From: Candidatus Rifleibacteriota bacterium
GTDB taxonomy: Bacteria > Muiribacteriota > Ozemobacteria > Ozemobacterales > Ozemobacteraceae
Direction: 5' to 3'
Length of the DNA: 47,565 nt
NCBI GenBank assembly: GCA_012517355.1
Contig: JAAYVD010000043.1
Coordinates: 1 to 47,565, forward strand
In this document: positions 21,719 to 32,126 of the stretch, piece after piece
Layout: each line of letters starts with the position of its first letter
Numbering within the stretch: position 1 is the stretch's first letter
Notes under the pieces: generated by a model
Seen by the model: only the letters and a program-made list of their open reading frames with translations
The model's database searches: none
Told to the model about the DNA's origin: nothing
Made by a program: the position numbers and the translations under genes

Positions 21719-23659
21719 TCAGGAACCATGGCGGTCCTCCTTCAGGAAGCGGAAGTCGCCATCGCGCCGGGTGACCCCCTCCTCGTCGAACCGGGCCAGC
21801 AGGAGCAGGCAGATCTTGCGGTTGCCCTGGATCAGGTCGCGGAAGTCGCTGACCTTGATCCCCTCGGCCGGCCGTTCCCGCAACCGCGCCACCAGTTTTT
21901 GCCGGCAGTCGTCGACCACGGTGTGGTGGAGGTGGTTGTCCTCGATCCTGACGACCTTCCCGGTCTGGACCAGGTGGTGGAGGATCCCGCCGAGTTCCTT
22001 GTCGCCGAGCCCCTGCCGGCCGGCCAGGGCCTTGATCTCGCTCATCAACGGGGTCTGCATGCCGCAGCCACGCAGGAATTCCTCGATGACGGCGACGTTC
22101 CGGGCCAGCCGCGGATCGACCGCCCCGTCGTCGTCGAACAGGAACCAGGTGCCCGCGCTCTCGCGCAGCTTCTGCCGCTCGAGCAGGCCGCGCACCAGCG
22201 ACAGGATGACCTCGTCGTGGCCGGCGCGGCGCTCCAGGCGAAGGTGGGAACGCAGCTCGTCGAGGTCGATGCCGCGGGCCGACAGCGGGTTGCGCTTGCG
22301 GTGGTCGCCGGTCGCCGCCAGGATGGCGGCGCGCAGGGCGTCGAGGCAGGTGGCCGATGCCAGCACGGGGCCTTCCTTCGTCGGCACCTGGGTCACCCCC
22401 CGCAGGGGGCCGGCGGCGATGGCCCGGGCGACGCTGTCGGGGGCGACGTTGAGTTTGCCTGCCACCTCGGCGAGGGTCAGGGGAATGGGGGCCTTGCGCA
22501 CCTCGGCGGCGACCAGTTCGTCGAGCCGGTTCCTGGCGATCAGCGACAGTTCGCTGACCAGGCGTTCCGGCCGGCGCCGGTGGTGGAGGGGGGCGGCATC
22601 GATGATCTCGCCGCCCCCGATGGTCAGGTCGCACGACGAGTTGCGGACCACGAACCGGTCGCCGTGCTGCAGGAAGGCTGGCTCCTGCAGGTGGATTTGT
22701 ACAAGTGCCGTTTCCTTGCTACCGACCCGGTCGCGGTCGATCAGGTGGATGCGGGCCTGGAGCTCGGCCGTTCCCGCGTGCAGGACGACCTGCGACCAGA
22801 GGCCGAGCGCCGCGTCGGGGGCATACACGGCCAGGGTGGCGTCGACGAGCGTGGTCGCCGGCAGGGGCCGGTCGGCCAGCAGCATGCCGCGCCGGAACTC
22901 CGACCGTTCCAGGCCCACCAGGTTCAGCGAGGCCCGGTCGCCGGCCTGCACTTCGGGCACCTCCTCGCCGTGGCGTTCCAGGCGCCGCACCCGCAGTTCG
23001 CGGGCGTCGCGGCCGAGCAGGAAGACCGGGTCCTCCTTGCGGAGGCGGCCGCCGATGACGGTGCCGGTCACCACGGTGCCGAACCCGCTGACGCTGAAGA
23101 GGCGGTCGATGTAGAGACGGAACAGCCCTTCGGCGGGCCGGTTCCGGACCTGGTCGGCCATCCGGTCGATGGCCCGGCGCAGGTCGTCGAGGCCCGCCCC
23201 GGTCCTGGCCGAGACCCGCATGACGGGGGCCTTCGCCAGGAAGGTGCCGGCCAGAAACTCCCGGACGTCGGCTTCGCACAGGTCGAGGAACTCGGCGTCG
23301 ACCAGGTCGGTCTTGGTGAGGACGACGATCCCCTGCCGGATGCCGAGGATCTCCATGATCTGCAGGTGCTCGCGGGTCTGCGGCATCACGCCGTTGTCGG
23401 CGGCGATCACCAGCAGCACCATGTCGATGCCGCTGGCCCCGCCGACCATGGTGTGGATGAAATCGCGGTGGCCGGGCACGTCGATGACCGCCAACCGGCC
23501 GCCGTTCGACAGGGGGAGGTGGGCGAACCCGAGGTGGATGGTGATGCCCCGGTCGCGCTCCTCCCGGTGGGTGTCGCATTCGATGCCGGTGAGGGCGCGC
23601 ACCAGGGCGGTCTTGCCGTGATCGACGTGGCCGGCCGTGCCCAGGATGAGGTGCTTCAT
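21719..23659 (-). CDS. selB: selenocysteine-specific translation elongation factor SelB
   Basis: 646 residues, normal length. The GTPase domain has G1 GTAGHVDHGKT (8-18), the G2-region DRGITI, G3 DVPGH and G4 TKTD. EF-Tu-like domains II and III follow (SGFGTVVTGTV, RFVVRNSS..TIGGGEIID). The C-terminal winged helices that bind SECIS RNA are present (GQGLGDKELGGILHHLVQTGKVVRI, GIKVSDFRDLIQGNRKICLLLLARFDEEGVTRRDGDFRFL). It delivers Sec-tRNA to UGA codons. The ATG overlaps the selA stop (ATGA at 23656-23659). One TTGTACAA octamer lies inside the gene at 22697 and uses codons rare in this gene (CTT GTA CAA). Confidence 0.97.
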   Translation of the reverse strand: MKHLILGTAGHVDHGKTALVRALTGIECDTHREERDRGITIHLGFAHLPLSNGGRLAVIDVPGHRDFIHTMVGGASGIDMVLLVIAADNGVMPQTREHLQIMEILGIRQGIVVLTKTDLVDAEFLDLCEADVREFLAGTFLAKAPVMRVSARTGAGLDDLRRAIDRMADQVRNRPAEGLFRLYIDRLFSVSGFGTVVTGTVIGGRLRKEDPVFLLGRDARELRVRRLERHGEEVPEVQAGDRASLNLVGLERSEFRRGMLLADRPLPATTLVDATLAVYAPDAALGLWSQVVLHAGTAELQARIHLIDRDRVGSKETALVQIHLQEPAFLQHGDRFVVRNSSCDLTIGGGEIIDAAPLHHRRRPERLVSELSLIARNRLDELVAAEVRKAPIPLTLAEVAGKLNVAPDSVARAIAAGPLRGVTQVPTKEGPVLASATCLDALRAAILAATGDHRKRNPLSARGIDLDELRSHLRLERRAGHDEVILSLVRGLLERQKLRESAGTWFLFDDDGAVDPRLARNVAVIEEFLRGCGMQTPLMSEIKALAGRQGLGDKELGGILHHLVQTGKVVRIEDNHLHHTVVDDCRQKLVARLRERPAEGIKVSDFRDLIQGNRKICLLLLARFDEEGVTRRDGDFRFLKEDRHGS

Positions 23660-25248
23660 GCGTCGCGGCGGCCGGGAACCCGCTTCCGGCCTGTCGGGGC
23701 CCGGCGGCGCCGTACCTGGTCCGGGGTGGGCGGCTCCTTCGGAGCGGTGGCCGGGTCGGCCTGGTCGAGGGTGGCCGGGTCGGCCTGATCGAGGGTGGCC
23801 GGGTCGGCCTGATCGAGGGTGGCCGGGTCGGCCTGGTCGAGAGTGGCGGCGGCGGCGGCCACGGCGGTGGCGACGGGGTCGAGATCGGCCTCGGCGAGGG
23901 TCAGCGCGTCGAACAGCAGTTCCCCCCCGCGCAGGACGGCGAGGACGGGCCGGTCGAGGGCGAGCAGGGCATGGAACAGGGCGGAGGCCCAGGCCGACCG
24001 CTTCTGCTGCGAGGAGGCGGCCGCCGTGAGGGCGACGGCGGCGCTGGCGATCTCGAGATCGGGCAGGGTGCCGCCCCCGCAGCGGCCGATGCTGTCGACG
24101 ACGCGGGAGGCGATTCCGCGGCGGGCGAGGCGGTCGCGCAGGGCTTCGGCCTTCCCGCGCACCGACTCCGGGGAGGCGTCGAGCATGGCGAAGAGGGGAA
24201 GGGTCTCGACGAGCCGTTCGTCGCTGAGGTAGGCGCGGGCGGCGGCGGCCAGGGCGGCGATGGTCAGTTTCCCGACCCGGAAGGCCCGCATCAGGGGGGC
24301 CCGCTCGAGGCGCCCCAGCAGGTCGCGCCGGCCGGCGAGGATGCCCGCCTGGGGCCCGCCCAGGAGCTTGTCCCCGCTGAAGGTCAGCAGGTCGACGCCC
24401 TGCGCCAGGGCCCCGCGCACGTCGGGTTCGTCGGGCAGCGGGATGCGGGCTGGCTTGCGCAGCAGCCCCGACCCGATGTCGTAGAGCACGGGCAGGGCGC
24501 GGTCCCGGCCCAGTTGCCCGAGGGCCGGCAGGGAGACCTCTTCGGTGAAGCCGGTGATGGCGTAGTTCGACTTGTGCGCCTTGAAGAGCATCGCGGTCTG
24601 CGGGGTGATGGCCCGCTCGTAGTCCTGGAGGCGGGTGCGGTTGGTGGTGCCGACCTCGACCATCCGGGCCCCCGAGGCGGCCAGGATGTCGGGGATCCGG
24701 AACGAGCCGCCGATCTCGATCAACTCACCGCGCGAGACGATGACCTCGCGACCGGCCGCCAGAGTGCTCAGGGCCAGCACCAGCGCGGCGGCGTTGTTGT
24801 TCACCACGAGGGCGGCCTCGGCCCCGGTCAGATGGCAGAGGAGCGCCTCGAGGTGGACCTTGCGGTGGCCCCGGCTGCCGGTGGCGAGGTCGAACTCGAG
24901 GTTGCAGTAGCCGGTCACCGCCTCGCGCATCTCGGCGAAGATGCGCTCCCCGAGCGGTACCCGACCCAGGTTCGTGTGGATCATGATCCCCGTGGCGTTG
25001 ATCACCGGCCGCAGGGACGGGCCGGCGATGCGGCGGCAGATCGCCTCCGTCTCGCGGGCGAGGGCTTCCGGCGTGGGTGCCTCCCCGCCGGCCAGGACCC
25101 CGGCCCGCGCCCGCGCGATGGCCTGTTGCAGCGCCGGTTTCACCAGGTCGGTCCCGAACCGGCGGCAGGCCTCGCGGAGGGGCCCGGTCTGGAGCATCCG
25201 GTCCACGCCGGGCAGGGCGCGCAACCGGGAATGGGCGTTCTCGTTCAT
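23656..25248 (-). CDS. selA: L-seryl-tRNA(Sec) selenium transferase with repetitive tail
   Basis: 530 residues; the family is about 460. The PLP-dependent fold is clear: INATGIMIHTNLGR (83-96), GYCNLEFDLATGSRGHR (113-129), VVNNNAAALVLAL, KSNYAITGF, YDIGSGLL, and the PLP-lysine motif TFSGDKLLGGPQAG (Lys294). It converts Ser-tRNA(Sec) to Sec-tRNA(Sec) with selenophosphate. The C-terminal 60 residues are additional: four to five copies of ATLDQADP from a 24-bp tandem repeat, then a basic Arg/Lys tail. It begins 35 bases after tRNA-Sec, so the RNA, selA and selB are probably one transcript. No selD is in the window. Confidence 0.97.
   Translation of the reverse strand: MNENAHSRLRALPGVDRMLQTGPLREACRRFGTDLVKPALQQAIARARAGVLAGGEAPTPEALARETEAICRRIAGPSLRPVINATGIMIHTNLGRVPLGERIFAEMREAVTGYCNLEFDLATGSRGHRKVHLEALLCHLTGAEAALVVNNNAAALVLALSTLAAGREVIVSRGELIEIGGSFRIPDILAASGARMVEVGTTNRTRLQDYERAITPQTAMLFKAHKSNYAITGFTEEVSLPALGQLGRDRALPVLYDIGSGLLRKPARIPLPDEPDVRGALAQGVDLLTFSGDKLLGGPQAGILAGRRDLLGRLERAPLMRAFRVGKLTIAALAAAARAYLSDERLVETLPLFAMLDASPESVRGKAEALRDRLARRGIASRVVDSIGRCGGGTLPDLEIASAAVALTAAASSQQKRSAWASALFHALLALDRPVLAVLRGGELLFDALTLAEADLDPVATAVAAAAATLDQADPATLDQADPATLDQADPATLDQADPATAPKEPPTPDQVRRRRAPTGRKRVPGRRDA
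23747..23842. repeat. 24-bp tandem repeat in the 3' end of selA
   Basis: Four units of gtggccgggtcggcctg(g/a)tcgag(g/a), nearly identical, encoding ATLDQADP on the minus strand. The near-identity suggests recent copy-number change. It adds a tail outside the conserved enzyme. Confidence 0.93.
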
Positions 25249-25282
25249 CGCTGGAACCTTCCCCCGACGACGGGGTGATCAT

Positions 25283-25374
25283 CAGAGGGGGCAGGAATCG
25301 GACCTGCCACGGACGGTGTTATCCGCCCGCTACTGGTTTTGAAGACCAGCTGGGACACCAGTCCCGTCCCCTCC
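25283..25374 (-). tRNA. selC: tRNA-Sec (anticodon TCA)
   Basis: 92 nt on the minus strand. The anticodon arm ctggtct-TCA-aaaccag gives anticodon TCA. The D arm is gggac-tggt-gtccc. The long variable arm gcgggcgg..ccgtccgt has eight base pairs including two G-T. The T arm is gcagg-tccgatt-cctgc. The discriminator is G, as is universal in tRNA-Sec. The acceptor GGAGGGG pairs with CCCCTCT (first pair G-T). That gives seven pairs and not the usual eight, unless TGGAGGGG/CCCCTCTG with two wobble pairs is counted. CCA is not encoded. It lies 34 bases ahead of selA. Confidence 0.95.
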
Positions 25375-25751
25375 AGGCAGCGGCCGACCGGCCGTGCACG
25401 CTGAGTCTACCCGGCCCGGCGGTGCAAGTCAACGGAACCATGCCTCCCCCAGGAATTCCCACTCAGCGCTCCCAGGCTCTTCTGATGGACAGAGATTTCC
25501 GCAAGTCTTGACCCACTCGGCAAGTCAGACCGGAACAGCCCGGAGAACCGCTTCAGCAGACATGGTGAGGATTGCTGCGCCTCCCCAGCCCCCCGAAGAA
25601 GCCAGACGGATGTGGCTGGGGAAGGCTTTCCGCCCCCGGCGCGGGAGGTCGGGACGGACCCCCGGGTCCGCCTGTCAGGGGAACCGCGGCCCCGCGGCGA
25701 GGCCACCCTCGCGCCGGTCGGTCGCCGGAGATCCCGGGAAGAGGCGGGTTC

Positions 25752-27781: not shown

Positions 27782-27921
27782 GCTCTTTTCTCCCGGGGAG
27801 GATTTTCCCCATGGTATCACATCCCCCCAGTTCTGCGCTGGTGGCTGACGGAGCCCGGGAACCACGATGAAGACCGGCGGTTTTGCCTCGAAATGGCGGC
27901 CAGCCATCCTGCGTCCACCGT

Positions 27922-27947
27922 AGGGGCGGACCCCCGTGTCCGCCCCT
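27922..27947. repeat. palindromic intergenic repeat
   Basis: aggggcggac and gtccgcccct form a perfect 10-bp stem with loop ccccgt. A related, less perfect copy (ggacggacccccgggtccgcc) is near 25655. Such GGGGCGGACCCC..GTCCGCCCC elements are common between genes in many bacteria. The surrounding 411-bp gap before the riboswitch shows no gene. Confidence 0.75.
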
Positions 27948-28192
27948 GCCGGGCTGTGCTGACAGGCTTTTCCGGAGCCATCGCGGATCTTGGGACCGGA
28001 CGGCGCAGGCACGACCGCCGCCCGGACCCCTTCCCAGGGGTGGCCTGCCGAACACTCCGCGTCCGGCAGGCGCACTGCACGCCGCGCTGGCCGCCCAGGT
28101 CGTGTGTCTCTGCTGACCGTGCGGGTTCCAACCTTGCGGTTGCCCGGTTTCAACGGTGGTTGATCCGGGAAGTTTCTGGTATCAAGAATGGC

Positions 28193-28246
28193 AAGAGGGG
28201 GATGGAGTCCCCCGATAATCGCTTCCATAGCTGATGACTCCTACCG
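28193..28246 (+). ncRNA. fluoride riboswitch (crcB motif), plus strand
   Basis: The conserved core is present in order: stem ggggg (28197-28201), loop ATGGAGT, stem ccccc (28209-28213), GATAATCGC, a short loop, then GCTGATGACTCCTAC (28230-28244). GGAGT in the first loop can pair with ACTCC in the 3' segment, forming the pseudoknot that closes around fluoride. A weak promoter (ttgatc, 18 bases, aagaat at 28184-28189) would start transcription just before it. The 3' conserved segment is also the 5' arm of the adjoining terminator, so fluoride binding should allow read-through. Confidence 0.93.
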
Positions 28247-28282
28247 GTCGGTTGTCCGGAACCGACCGGTAGGAGTTTTTTT
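28237..28282 (+). terminator. intrinsic terminator forming the expression platform of the plus-strand fluoride riboswitch
   Basis: actcctaccggtcggtt pairs perfectly with aaccgaccggtaggagt (17 bp) around loop gtccgg, followed by seven T (28276-28282). The first arm reuses the ACTCCTAC of the aptamer, so hairpin and pseudoknot are mutually exclusive. No fluoride gives termination; fluoride gives expression of the downstream gene. Confidence 0.93.
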
Positions 28283-28402
28283 GCGGCTCGGAGCGGGGGG
28301 GCGGTGAGCCTCGCCAGGGCCCACCGCCCGGCCCCGCCCGTCGCAGGGCTCGATCGGACGGATGGCCATGAATGTGCGGTAGGAGCTTCGCAGGTGGAGA
28401 CG

Positions 28403-28630
28403 ATGACGCGGGAGGGATGGTGGGCTGTCGTTGGAATCTCGCTGGTGTTCGGAGCCCTGGCCGGGGGGTGTGCCTTCCTCATTTCCTACCAGGAATACGA
28501 ACACCCCTTCCCCGACCCGCGAAGGGTCTGGTGGGCGTCGATGGAAACGGGAATCGTGGCTTTTCTCTTTTTCGGGATACTGTCGACCCTGATTTTCCTG
28601 TGGTTCCCTGTATGGCTCAAACCGCTTTGA
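28403..28630 (+). CDS. 75-residue two-helix membrane protein under fluoride control
   Basis: ATG at 28403 follows aggtggag by about five bases. Two strong membrane segments are VVGISLVFGALAGGCAFLIS (about 8-28) and GIVAFLFFGILSTLIFLWFP (about 48-68). They are joined by a charged loop (YQEYEHPFPDPRRVWWASMET). It is not CrcB/Fluc (which has four segments and the GxLTTFSTF block) and not CLC-F. It is the first gene after the plus-strand fluoride riboswitch and terminator, so fluoride induction is expected. I know of no named family. A fluoride-tolerance role is inferred from the riboswitch alone. A longer frame upstream lacks a binding site. Confidence 0.72.
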   Translation: MTREGWWAVVGISLVFGALAGGCAFLISYQEYEHPFPDPRRVWWASMETGIVAFLFFGILSTLIFLWFPVWLKPL

Positions 28631-28701
28631 GGCGGGCCTCACCGCTTCTTGAACCGGCGGGGAACGGGTGACCGCCCGGGAACCCCGCAAGGAGGCTGAA
28701 C

Positions 28702-28857
28702 ATGAACCGGAAGTCAGAACATTCAGAGACGCCGATGCCGGGGAGCGATGAACCGGCCGGCACCGGCGGTGAAGATGATGTCGGACTGGAATTTCCCTCC
28801 CAGGTCCAGCGCAAAATGGAAGACCCGCAACGCCGGTTCGGAGCTGTCAGGGGCTAG
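28702..28857 (+). CDS. 51-codon ORF antisense to the truncated usp gene, doubtful
   Basis: ATG at 28702 has an excellent site (aaggagg, about six bases upstream) and encodes a hydrophilic peptide (MNRKSEHSETPMPGSDEP..EFPSQVQRKMEDPQRRF). It lies 71 bases after the 75-residue membrane protein and could be the second fluoride-induced gene. However, it overlaps almost exactly, antisense, the universal stress protein fragment at 28723-28878, whose sequence is clearly homologous to a known family. The ORF may be a by-product. Confidence 0.3.
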   Translation: MNRKSEHSETPMPGSDEPAGTGGEDDVGLEFPSQVQRKMEDPQRRFGAVRG

Positions 28858-28878
28858 CAGGATTTTTTGCAGGGACAT
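28723..28878 (-). pseudogene. truncated universal stress protein (UspA N-terminus)
   Basis: 51 codons from ATG 28878, which has gaggagg upstream. It reads MSLQKILLAPDSSEPALRVF, then HFALDLGGKFQSDIIFTAGA, and stops ten codons later. This is the first beta strand, the DxSE loop and first helix, and the second strand of a Usp domain, which normally runs about 140 residues with a GxxGxxxxx-GS ATP loop near the end. That loop is absent. It is the last gene of the minus-strand fluoride operon, 46 bases after the CBS gene. Universal stress proteins are frequent in fluoride-riboswitch operons. Most likely it is a 3'-deleted copy. Confidence 0.7.
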
Positions 28879-28924
28879 GGTGTCCTCCTCTTCCCGACAT
28901 CAGGAATGTGCCCCAAGGGGCCGA

Positions 28925-30208
28925 TCAGGCGTCTTGGCGCACGGCGACCCGCAACAGCGAATCGCGACTGATCAGGCCTTTGAATTTTCCCGCCGCATCG
29001 ACCACCGGGAGTCTTTTCAGAAAGTGCTTCCTCATGAGCCGGATGGCCTCGTTGATTTCCAGATCCTCTCCAATCGTGATCAAGTCAGACTTCATCAGGT
29101 CGGCGGCCGTCTTCTTTCCGGATCGTTCCAGGATTTCGCGATACTCGCGGCCGACCTGGAGAAAGGACAGCCGGCTGGCCAGAAAGGCCCAGAGGCCCGG
29201 TTTCTGGTCGGAAAAGGCTCCCAGGAGATCCTTGTCCGAAACGAGGCCGAGGAACCGGCCATCCTTGTCGGTCACGGGAATCCGTTGCAGGTTCTCGTTC
29301 ACCATGAGTCGCAGGACCTCCCCCAACGGACAATCGGGAAGGACCGTGGCCTGATCGCGGGTCATGATGTCCTTGACCTGGCACAGCCCCGTCACTTTGA
29401 CATTCCGTTCGGCAAGATGCCTCCAATTGGGCGATTCCCGGGCAATCGTCCGGAAGATGTCGGACCGGGCCAGGATGCCGGACAGGCGGCCGTCGTCATC
29501 CAGGATGGGAATCCTCTTCAGATTCCTGGCCAGCATGAGGTCGACCGCGGTCAGCAGGTTCTCGTCCGCTTTCAGGCAGGTCACGGGCTGCGTCATGACC
29601 TCCCGGACCTGGCGATTGGCCAGGGTCTGGTAGTATTCTTCCAACTCCCTGGCTTGGAATTCCGCCAGCAGGCCAAGGCGCAATGGCAGATCCGCCTTCT
29701 TTTTCAAATCACCCTGGGTGATGATGCCCACCGGTTTTTTTGCATGGTCCACCACCGGCAGCCCATTGAATTTCTCCGACAGGAGGAGCTTCACCGCCTC
29801 GGCCAGGGGGTCGGTGGAATGGATGAACCGCGGATTCGGGGTCATGGCATCGCGGATGCGGAGATGCTTCGGGAGAATGGCCTTCTTCGTCCGGTGGGCG
29901 ACCACCGGCAGGTTATCCACGGCCACCACCCCTTCTTCCACCATGGCCTCGATTTCGGGCAGGACGAAGGGCATCTCCGCCGCCGGCAGGACGATGTCGA
30001 TTTGCAGGGGGCGGTTGAAGCTCAAGACCTCGATGGTCGGAAGGCAAAGATCGCCGTTTTCAAAGGAACCCGCCATGCCGGAAAAAACCGAGCAGCGGGC
30101 CGCGATCTTCAGCTCACCCACGAATTGGACGATCGCTTTCCACAGCGAAAGGCCGCCGAACCTGGCATCTTCAGTCGTGTAGATCCGAATCAACCGGTAT
30201 TTCAACAC
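28925..30208 (-). CDS. DUF190-CBS domain protein of the fluoride operon
   Basis: 427 residues from GTG 30208, with aaggggag upstream. Residues 1-105 are a DUF190 domain (KYRLIRIYTTEDARFGGLSLWKAIV..LPTIEVLSFNRPLQIDIV). The rest holds four CBS motifs starting near 116 (RDAMTPNPRFIHSTDPL), 197 (REVMTQPVTCLKADENL), 277 (KDIMTRDQATVLPDCPL) and 367 (ADLMKSDLITIGEDLEI). CBS pairs bind adenosine nucleotides and gate partner proteins. DUF190 genes are regular neighbours of crcB. It starts 13 bases after the crcB stop and is probably a regulatory partner of the channel or antiporter. Confidence 0.92.
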   Translation of the reverse strand: MLKYRLIRIYTTEDARFGGLSLWKAIVQFVGELKIAARCSVFSGMAGSFENGDLCLPTIEVLSFNRPLQIDIVLPAAEMPFVLPEIEAMVEEGVVAVDNLPVVAHRTKKAILPKHLRIRDAMTPNPRFIHSTDPLAEAVKLLLSEKFNGLPVVDHAKKPVGIITQGDLKKKADLPLRLGLLAEFQARELEEYYQTLANRQVREVMTQPVTCLKADENLLTAVDLMLARNLKRIPILDDDGRLSGILARSDIFRTIARESPNWRHLAERNVKVTGLCQVKDIMTRDQATVLPDCPLGEVLRLMVNENLQRIPVTDKDGRFLGLVSDKDLLGAFSDQKPGLWAFLASRLSFLQVGREYREILERSGKKTAADLMKSDLITIGEDLEINEAIRLMRKHFLKRLPVVDAAGKFKGLISRDSLLRVAVRQDA

Positions 30209-30221
30209 CGCCCTCTCCCCT

Positions 30222-30596
30222 TCACCAGAACTTTCCTACCCTCCAACCCAGCAGGACCAGGAACAATCCAACCAGATTGTTCAATACCAGATTGGCGAAG
30301 GCCAGCCGGAATGCCCCGGTCCTGGCCGCGGCCACGGTTTCCAGCGCATACGTGGAGAACGTCGTCAGGGCCCCCAGGAACCCGGTGACGAAAAACAGGC
30401 GGGCGGCCGGGCCAACGACCAGATGGCGTTCGGCCAGAGAGAGGGCCAGACCGATCAGGAAGCTCCCGGAAAGGTTGACGATCAGGGTGCCCCAGGGAAA
30501 ATTGGTGCCGAACAGGCTGACCGCCAACAGGGAAATGCCGTACCGGCTCAAGGCGCCGAGACTTCCGCCGACCATGACGAGAATGGCCTGGGTCAT
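30222..30596 (-). CDS. crcB: fluoride channel CrcB/Fluc
   Basis: 124 residues with four membrane segments. Family landmarks are GGSLGALSRYGIS (10-22), GTLIVNLSGSFLIGL with the polar-track Asn, and GFLGALTTFSTYALET with the Phe-box/TTFST signature. Fluc proteins are dual-topology dimers that export fluoride. The ATG overlaps the antiporter stop (ATGA at 30593-30596), so the two are translated together. It is the second gene after the minus-strand fluoride riboswitch. Confidence 0.97.
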   Translation of the reverse strand: MTQAILVMVGGSLGALSRYGISLLAVSLFGTNFPWGTLIVNLSGSFLIGLALSLAERHLVVGPAARLFFVTGFLGALTTFSTYALETVAAARTGAFRLAFANLVLNNLVGLFLVLLGWRVGKFW

Positions 30597-31810
30597 TTGG
30601 CCGGATCGGGGTTCTGCGCGGGCGACTCGGGAGGAATGGGGAGCACCGGGGCTTCCGGATTCTCGCGCAGTAAATGGCCCGGCAGGAAGAAGGCGTTGGC
30701 GACCAGGGTCGGGAGGACGGCGCTGCCGACCACCGCCGCCACCAGGTAGGAATACTGCGGGGTGTTGATGATGCCATGGGTCAGGCCGAACAAGGCGGAG
30801 ATGCTGCCAAAGGTCAACCCCGTCGACATCAGCAGCGTGGTATACATGCCCTCGCCCCGGGAGTTGTCAAAACGCTGGGTGGCCGGGTACACCGCCAGGG
30901 TCTTGGATGCGATCTTGATGAGAAACAACCATACCAGGGGCGCAGGAGCTGCCACCAGCGCGGGAATGGAGACCAATGAGCCGGCCCGGATGAAGTAGAA
31001 CGGGGTCAGCAGGCCGAACGTCAAGGTTCGCAGGCGGCGGATGAGGACATGGTCCTTGCCGACCGTTCCGGCCAGCATCATGCCGATGAGATAGGCGGGC
31101 AGGACGGCTTCGCTGTCGGCCCAGACCGCCAGGCCGCCGAACCCGAACAGGATCAGCAGGAGGAACTTGGCCTCGAGTTCCGAGGGTCTTCCCCCGAAGC
31201 GGATGAAAAATCGTGGTGTCACCCAGGGGAGAACCAGGAAGCCCAGGAACACCACGCCCAGGAAGACGACCATCCGGTACGAGAAGGGGGCGAAAATGAA
31301 CCCCAGCGCGAGAACCGTCCCCAGGTCGGTGACGAAGCAGGCGGCCAGGAGGGTTTTCCCGAATTCGGTCTGGTTGAGGCCGAACTCGAGCATGACCGCA
31401 TAGACGACCGCGACCGAGGTGGTCGACAGGGCCACCCCGGCCAGCCAGCTGGCTTCGCTCGACCACTGGAGCCAATAGTACGCCCCGGCGGTGCACAGCA
31501 GGAACGGGCTCAGGAAGCTGACGAAGCCCACGACCGTGGCCTCTTTCCAGTTGGCCCGGAAGATCCGGGGATCCAGTTCCGCTCCGGCCAGGAAGGTCAG
31601 GAGGATGGCACCGGTTCCTGATAGGAATTTGATCCAGGAGATGTCGGCGGTCAGGAGAGCGCTGCCGAACAAAGCCCCCATGAACAATTGGGCCACGGTG
31701 CCGACGACGATTTCCGAAAGGGCCGTGGCGATGCCCAGGCCGATGGAAAGGAGCGTGGCCAGGAGGGCCAAGCCCAGCCAGAGGGTTGCGAGAAACCAGG
31801 TTTCGGCCAT
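30593..31810 (-). CDS. CPA2-type cation/proton antiporter of the fluoride operon
   Basis: 405 residues from ATG 31810 (gggaggt upstream), with about 11-12 membrane segments. Diagnostic stretches are LTFLAGAELDPRIF (the GxELD-type loop), AGVALSTTSVAVVYAVM, AACFVTDLGTVLALGF (the TDLG motif with the conserved Asp of the ion site), and PAYLIGMMLAGTV. There is no C-terminal NAD-binding domain, so it is a short KefB/NapA-like form. CPA antiporters are known members of fluoride-riboswitch operons, presumably restoring pH or cation balance when HF enters. It is the first gene after the minus-strand riboswitch and is coupled to crcB. Confidence 0.93.
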   Translation of the reverse strand: MAETWFLATLWLGLALLATLLSIGLGIATALSEIVVGTVAQLFMGALFGSALLTADISWIKFLSGTGAILLTFLAGAELDPRIFRANWKEATVVGFVSFLSPFLLCTAGAYYWLQWSSEASWLAGVALSTTSVAVVYAVMLEFGLNQTEFGKTLLAACFVTDLGTVLALGFIFAPFSYRMVVFLGVVFLGFLVLPWVTPRFFIRFGGRPSELEAKFLLLILFGFGGLAVWADSEAVLPAYLIGMMLAGTVGKDHVLIRRLRTLTFGLLTPFYFIRAGSLVSIPALVAAPAPLVWLFLIKIASKTLAVYPATQRFDNSRGEGMYTTLLMSTGLTFGSISALFGLTHGIINTPQYSYLVAAVVGSAVLPTLVANAFFLPGHLLRENPEAPVLPIPPESPAQNPDPAK

Positions 31811-31984
31811 GCGGGTTTCTACCTCCCGGGATGTCTGACAGAAGCCTGGTGGCATGGTGACGATCCGGAGGGGATCACCAGCCAGCGGGATACGACAAGC
31901 GGATTCACAGGCAAAGGCCCTTGGGGTGTGGGGTTCGGAATACAGGCAGGAAGGGGAGCCAGGACCAGGAGAACCTTCTCAGGG

Positions 31985-32015
31985 AAAAACCAACCCACCG
32001 GGCATGTCACCCGGT
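31985..32015 (-). terminator. possible attenuator between fluoride riboswitch 2 and the antiporter gene
   Basis: On the minus strand, accggg (32015-32010) and cccggt (32002-31997) make a 6-bp stem with a 7-base loop, followed by gggttgg and TTTTT (31989-31985). It lies about 50 bases after the aptamer and 175 before the ATG. It is weaker than the terminator of riboswitch 1 and does not share sequence with the aptamer, so its regulatory use is uncertain. Confidence 0.4.
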
Positions 32016-32066
32016 TGCCAACAGATTCCATCGGTTCCCCCCCTTGCATGACATGGCTGGCTACCA

Positions 32067-32118
32067 GTAGGAGTCATCAGCCAGGTCGGCGCTTCAAGGG
32101 GGGGACTCCATCCCCTAC
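32067..32118 (-). ncRNA. fluoride riboswitch (crcB motif), minus strand
   Basis: Reads on the minus strand GTAGGGG-ATGGAGT-CCCCC (32119-32100 region), a variable GCGCC arm, then GGCTGATGACTCCTAC ending at 32067. All conserved blocks of the crcB motif are present and GGAGT can pair with ACTCC. It starts within a few bases of the predicted transcription start of the adjacent promoter. It precedes the antiporter-crcB-DUF190/CBS-usp operon by about 260 bases of leader. Confidence 0.94.
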
Positions 32119-32126
32119 GTCGGAAA

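What the first reader, a model, noticed from the sequence alone, without database searches (positions are those of the whole stretch)
28193..28630. Fluoride riboswitch controlling an unfamiliar 75-residue membrane protein
A textbook crcB-motif aptamer overlaps a 17-bp terminator with a T7 run, so regulation by fluoride is well supported. The first gene after it is not crcB, CLC-F or another usual member. It is a two-helix membrane protein (28403-28630). It is a candidate new fluoride-tolerance component, placed back to back with the main fluoride operon.
Basis: partly seen in the sequence, partly recalled or inferred. Interest (0 to 1): 0.8.

Follow-up and report, generated by a model that had tools for sequence, protein, structure and literature searches.

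The report
Fluoride switch before an orphan gene
A bacterium related to Candidatus Ozemobacter carries a normal, intact-looking fluoride sensor RNA in front of a small two-helix membrane protein gene that was found in no other genome searched, so the switch is ordinary and the gene is a probable but unproven orphan.

Summary
The RNA observation holds. Rfam finds a fluoride riboswitch at 28189-28250 (+) (53.1 bits, gathering score 34). It is followed by a perfect 17-bp terminator stem with a T7 run. Its first downstream gene is not a known fluoride gene. The frame at 28403-28630 is better read from GTG 28394 (78 aa), which has AGGAG 8 nt upstream. Codon usage and two hydrophobic helices suggest it is truly coding (1 and 0 of 2000 shuffles do as well). 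The new-component claim is not established. The protein has no relative in the 39 genomes searched from its phylum, about 340 other genomes, plasmids, phages or viral contigs, or beside about 100 other fluoride riboswitches. Every other small two-helix first gene there is CrcB. Unit B and the main operon are convergent, not back to back. B's aptamer and terminator resemble the leader of the enolase/HAD fluoride operon of Ozemobacter (81-84% over about 86 bp), so B looks like a copy of that leader. It lies in a spot that differs between sister genomes, between dispersed repeats and a truncated stress-protein gene. Best reading: a functional fluoride ON switch that captured a species-restricted membrane-protein gene. 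A role in fluoride tolerance is possible but undemonstrated.

The parts
28189..28250 (+). Fluoride riboswitch aptamer of unit B (RF01734)
   Evidence: cmscan 53.1 bits, gathering 34, E 5e-12; conserved GGGGATGGAGTCCCCC and GCTGATGACTCCTAC intact
28237..28283 (+). Intrinsic terminator sharing the ACTCC pseudoknot strand: perfect 17-bp stem, 6-nt loop, T7
28177..28185 (+). Possible extended -10 element TGG-TATCAA; no good -35; tentative
   Evidence: read from sequence; compared with TGGTAGAGT of the sister leader; not found by the sigma-70 scan
28381..28385 (+). AGGAG ribosome-binding site, 8 nt before GTG 28394
   Evidence: sequence
28394..28630 (+). Orphan two-helix membrane protein, 78 aa from GTG (75 aa from ATG 28403)
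   Evidence: codon score 0.215 per codon, above the 99th percentile of non-coding frames and near the 1st percentile of coding windows; 1/2000 shuffles; AlphaFold helical hairpin H3-33/H39-71, pLDDT 82.5, pTM 0.53; no family
32061..32124 (-). Fluoride riboswitch of unit A (main operon)
   Evidence: 51.4 bits
30593..31810 (-). CPA2-type cation/proton antiporter, first gene of unit A
   Evidence: PF00999 E 2e-35; TIGR00932 matched below its cut-off
30222..30596 (-). CrcB/Fluc fluoride exporter
   Evidence: PF02537, TIGR00494 above cut-off
28925..30208 (-). DUF190 plus four CBS domains protein, unit A
   Evidence: PF02641, PF00571
28723..28878 (-). Truncated universal stress protein (51 aa; sisters have 138 aa between the antiporter and crcB)
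   Evidence: 53-58% identity to residues 2-39 of sister Usp, then no homology
28043..28148 (+). Dispersed repeat (about 20 places in the genome) ending about 40 nt before the aptamer
27854..28001 (+). Second dispersed repeat (about 25 places in the genome)

Best explanation
Unit B is an intact fluoride ON switch of the transcription-termination type. Its leader is a copy of, or shares ancestry with, the enolase/HAD fluoride leader of the genus, and it now stands before a species-restricted gene for a small two-helix membrane protein. Without fluoride, the ACTCC strand joins the 17-bp terminator and transcription stops at the T run. With fluoride, the Mg-fluoride aptamer pairs GGAGT with ACTCC, the terminator is blocked, and RNA polymerase reads into the 78-codon gene, which is translated from GTG 28394. 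The product is probably an N-in/C-in helical hairpin with an acidic outer loop. Shown by sequence: aptamer, terminator, coding-like frame, helices. Inferred: fluoride response, translation, topology. Most likely role, weakly held: an accessory subunit or modulator in the inner membrane, of no known family, made during fluoride stress.
For: Aptamer 53.1 bits. Terminator exact over 17 bp, leader fold z -6.5. Compared with sister leaders, the terminator keeps pairing through a two-sided change (TGC/GCA to TAC/GTA), so it does not look decayed. B matches the enolase/HAD leader in its own genome (84% over 86 bp) and in both sister genomes (82% and 81%). Its terminator is closest to those three among about 100 riboswitches (alignment scores 25, 25, 22; next 20). 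Enolase, HAD-like, dynamin-like and MutS-domain proteins follow those leaders. The frame has coding-like codon use, two helices and a ribosome-binding site, and a fairly confident helical hairpin model from a single sequence.
Against: No homologue anywhere searched, so no evolutionary evidence of selection on the protein. Codon score is at the low edge of real genes. The promoter is weak or unrecognised. 120 nt of GC-rich leader separates terminator and gene. Sister genomes lack the whole unit.
Confidence: 0.6

Rival explanations
1. Orphan switch: the leader was copied into this variable spot and lost its cargo; the small frame is a bystander or remnant of another membrane gene, with no role in fluoride response even if transcribed with it.
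For: The unit is absent from the matching interval of both sister genomes, which carry unrelated genes there. Dispersed repeats lie upstream and a truncated Usp gene lies downstream. No homologues of the frame. No similar first gene at about 100 other riboswitches.
Against: Coding score and two-helix pattern exceed shuffles; a ribosome-binding site precedes the frame; aptamer and terminator are not decayed.
Confidence: 0.3
2. The frame is not a protein gene; read-through RNA itself matters, for example as antisense RNA against the convergent Usp/CBS end of unit A, since no terminator was found between the two units.
For: Units are convergent and no plus-strand terminator-like site lies in 28630-28925.
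Against: Coding-like codon use and helices of the frame. Damping the fluoride operon when fluoride is present would make little sense.
Confidence: 0.06
3. The protein is a diverged fragment or relative of CrcB/Fluc or another known fluoride membrane protein.
For: Small, hydrophobic, and the other small two-helix first genes after fluoride riboswitches are CrcB.
Against: No PF02537 or TIGR00494 match. Two helices rather than four. A full CrcB is already in unit A. Fold search gives only generic helical hairpins, best E 1.1.
Confidence: 0.04

Closest known systems
Fluoride (crcB) riboswitch, Rfam RF01734
   Same: Consensus nucleotides, pairing and terminator platform all present
   Different: Only the downstream gene is unusual
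Enolase/HAD fluoride operon of Ozemobacter (own genome C126; G001 and G002)
   Same: Leader 81-84% identical over about 86 bp, including terminator stem
   Different: Those leaders precede enolase or a HAD-like protein, followed by dynamin-like and MutS-domain proteins
CrcB/Fluc fluoride exporters
   Same: Small membrane protein as first gene after a fluoride riboswitch
   Different: Two helices and 75-78 aa; no family match
Fluoride operon of Enterobacter cloacae FRM (PMC5533749)
   Same: Fluoride-riboswitch-controlled set with crcB, eno, uspA and an uncharacterised orf5249
   Different: No evidence that orf5249 is related; it was not compared here

Membership tests
Fluoride riboswitch RF01734 | Covariance-model score above the curated cut-off | tested here: met
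   53.1 versus 34 bits
Fluoride riboswitch RF01734 | Expression platform sharing the pseudoknot strand | tested here: met
   Terminator 5' arm begins at ACTCCTAC of the aptamer
Fluoride riboswitch RF01734 | Binds fluoride and changes gene expression | not testable with these tools
   Needs in-line probing or a reporter
Fluoride riboswitch RF01734 | Controls a known fluoride-stress gene (usual, but not required for the class) | tested here: not met
   First gene is an orphan
CrcB/Fluc (PF02537, TIGR00494) | Profile match of the downstream protein | tested here: not met
   No match
Any Pfam, NCBIfam, PHROG or PDB family | Significant sequence match of the downstream protein | tested here: not met
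   Best DUF1129 E 0.12, below cut-off; none

The most novel reading that the evidence does not exclude
The 78-residue protein is a new fluoride-induced membrane component, for example a modulator of the CPA2 antiporter or CrcB, recently added to the fluoride regulon by copying the enolase-operon leader in front of it.
Probability: 0.2. Interest if true: 0.55.

Novelty: new member of a known kind. Interest (0 to 1): 0.3.

Why it matters
If the protein is used in fluoride stress, it would be a membrane component outside the usual set of exporters and antiporters, and an example of a riboswitch leader being copied to bring a new gene under fluoride control. As it stands, it is one well-formed riboswitch and one orphan gene in a single genome.

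Tried and rejected
Homology searches with the 75-residue protein found nothing convincing: own genome, 95 and 381 relatives, all 39 held genomes of the phylum, 84,980 species genomes by peptide patterns, close relatives only, viral contigs, plasmids and phages, PDB, PHROGs. The best weak hits (E 0.0017-0.008 per genome, inside 299-918-aa or stop-broken frames) look like chance. The loci carrying relatives of the antiporter in Betaproteobacteria, Bryobacteraceae and an Arcobacter-labelled bin also lack it. The idea that B is a copy of riboswitch A was dropped: only 79% over 53 bp of constrained aptamer. A possible second control, pairing of CTCCTACC in the aptamer with GGTAGGAG at the ribosome-binding site, was not pursued: the 8-mer occurs four times on that strand of the window. 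Fold search: no significant match.

Full report
The aptamer is real. Rfam finds two fluoride riboswitches in the window, 28189-28250 (+; unit B, the finding) and 32124-32061 (-; unit A), both well above the gathering score. A third lies on another contig of the same genome, C126:11409-11470 (unit C). In unit B the 3' strand of the aptamer, ACTCCTACC, is also the 5' arm of a perfect 17-bp terminator followed by T7; the leader folds at -56 kcal/mol against -31.8 for shuffles (z -6.5). This is the classic transcription-termination ON switch arrangement.

Surroundings. Unit A is a standard fluoride operon: CPA2-type cation/proton antiporter, CrcB, and a DUF190 plus four-CBS protein. It is transcribed towards unit B, so the two are convergent. 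The nearest named genomes are Candidatus Ozemobacter sibiricus and a Candidatus Ozemobacteraceae MAG. In both sister genomes the operon order is antiporter, Usp, CrcB, DUF190-CBS, with a full 138-aa Usp. In the window Usp is gone from that place, and a 51-aa Usp fragment lies at the operon's end, next to unit B; no further Usp sequence was found in the window. The sisters have no riboswitch beyond the one heading their operon in the stretches read. The matching interval holds a flavodoxin-fold reductase and a MarR-like gene in one and other genes in the other (MarR by eye only). Upstream of unit B are two dispersed repeats, 27854-28001 and 28043-28148, each with about 20-25 places in the genome. 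Unit B is therefore a species-specific feature of a variable spot.

Origin of leader B. Its aptamer plus terminator match the unit C leader of the same genome (84% over 86 bp) and the unit C leaders of both sisters (82% and 81%). The match to leader A is only 79% over 53 bp. Among about 100 fluoride riboswitches surveyed, the terminator of B scores best against those three (25, 25, 22; next 20). Unit C carries enolase first in this genome and a HAD-like protein first in the sisters, with dynamin-like and MutS-domain proteins further along; enolase, HAD proteins and Na+/H+ antiporters are known fluoride-riboswitch genes (PMC11139923). The likeliest history is that a unit C leader was copied here (inference). 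Within the terminator, B keeps pairing where the sequence changed on both sides, which argues against decay.

The gene. ATG 28403 gives 75 aa; GTG 28394, with AGGAG 8 nt upstream, gives 78 aa and is the better start. ORF length is no evidence: 94% of shuffles hold one as long. Codon score (1 of 2000 shuffles) and two strongly hydrophobic segments (0 of 2000) are evidence, although the codon score lies near the lowest 1% of trusted coding windows. AlphaFold from one sequence gives a helical hairpin, pLDDT 82.5; fold matches are generic hairpins such as ATP synthase subunit c at E 1 or worse. No family matches.

No relative of this protein was found in any genome, plasmid, phage or viral collection searched, nor within about 1-2 kb downstream of about 100 fluoride riboswitches from 381 genomes (a few loci were cut short by contig ends, and one, L074, could not be placed). 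All other small two-helix first genes in that survey were CrcB. The genome-contig scan finds close relatives only, and metagenomes could not be searched.

Verdict. The riboswitch is a sound new member of a known class. The gene is probably real and probably fluoride-induced, but it is an orphan whose part in fluoride tolerance rests on position alone. The bystander reading remains open at about 0.3.

Noticed in passing
window 31810-32061 (-): In unit A the gap from aptamer to antiporter start is about 250 nt; in both sister genomes it is about 20-26 nt with the ribosome-binding site close to the aptamer. The extra stretch is unique in the genome, so control of the main operon may work differently here.
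   Followed up: partly
window 28723-28878 (-): Truncated universal stress protein at the end of the fluoride operon; the full gene sits between antiporter and crcB in sister genomes.
   Followed up: yes
window 27854-28148: Two families of dispersed repeats, each with about 20-25 places in this genome, side by side upstream of riboswitch B; no inverted repeat was found within them.
   Followed up: partly
window 21719-25375 (-): Selenocysteine tRNA, selA and selB together; SelA has a tail of DQADPATL-type tandem repeats.
   Followed up: no
L151, L152: The fluoride-operon antiporter is 65-67% identical to proteins in Betaproteobacteria MAGs, which also have Usp next to it, suggesting horizontal spread of the operon.
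   Followed up: partly
G164:C1:3458275-3483855: One genome outside the phylum shows six fluoride-riboswitch matches within 26 kb, three of them below the cut-off.
   Followed up: no
L045:7124-8442: The MutS-domain gene downstream of enolase/HAD in unit C of this genome appears split into two frames, while it is one 453-aa gene in a sister genome.
   Followed up: no
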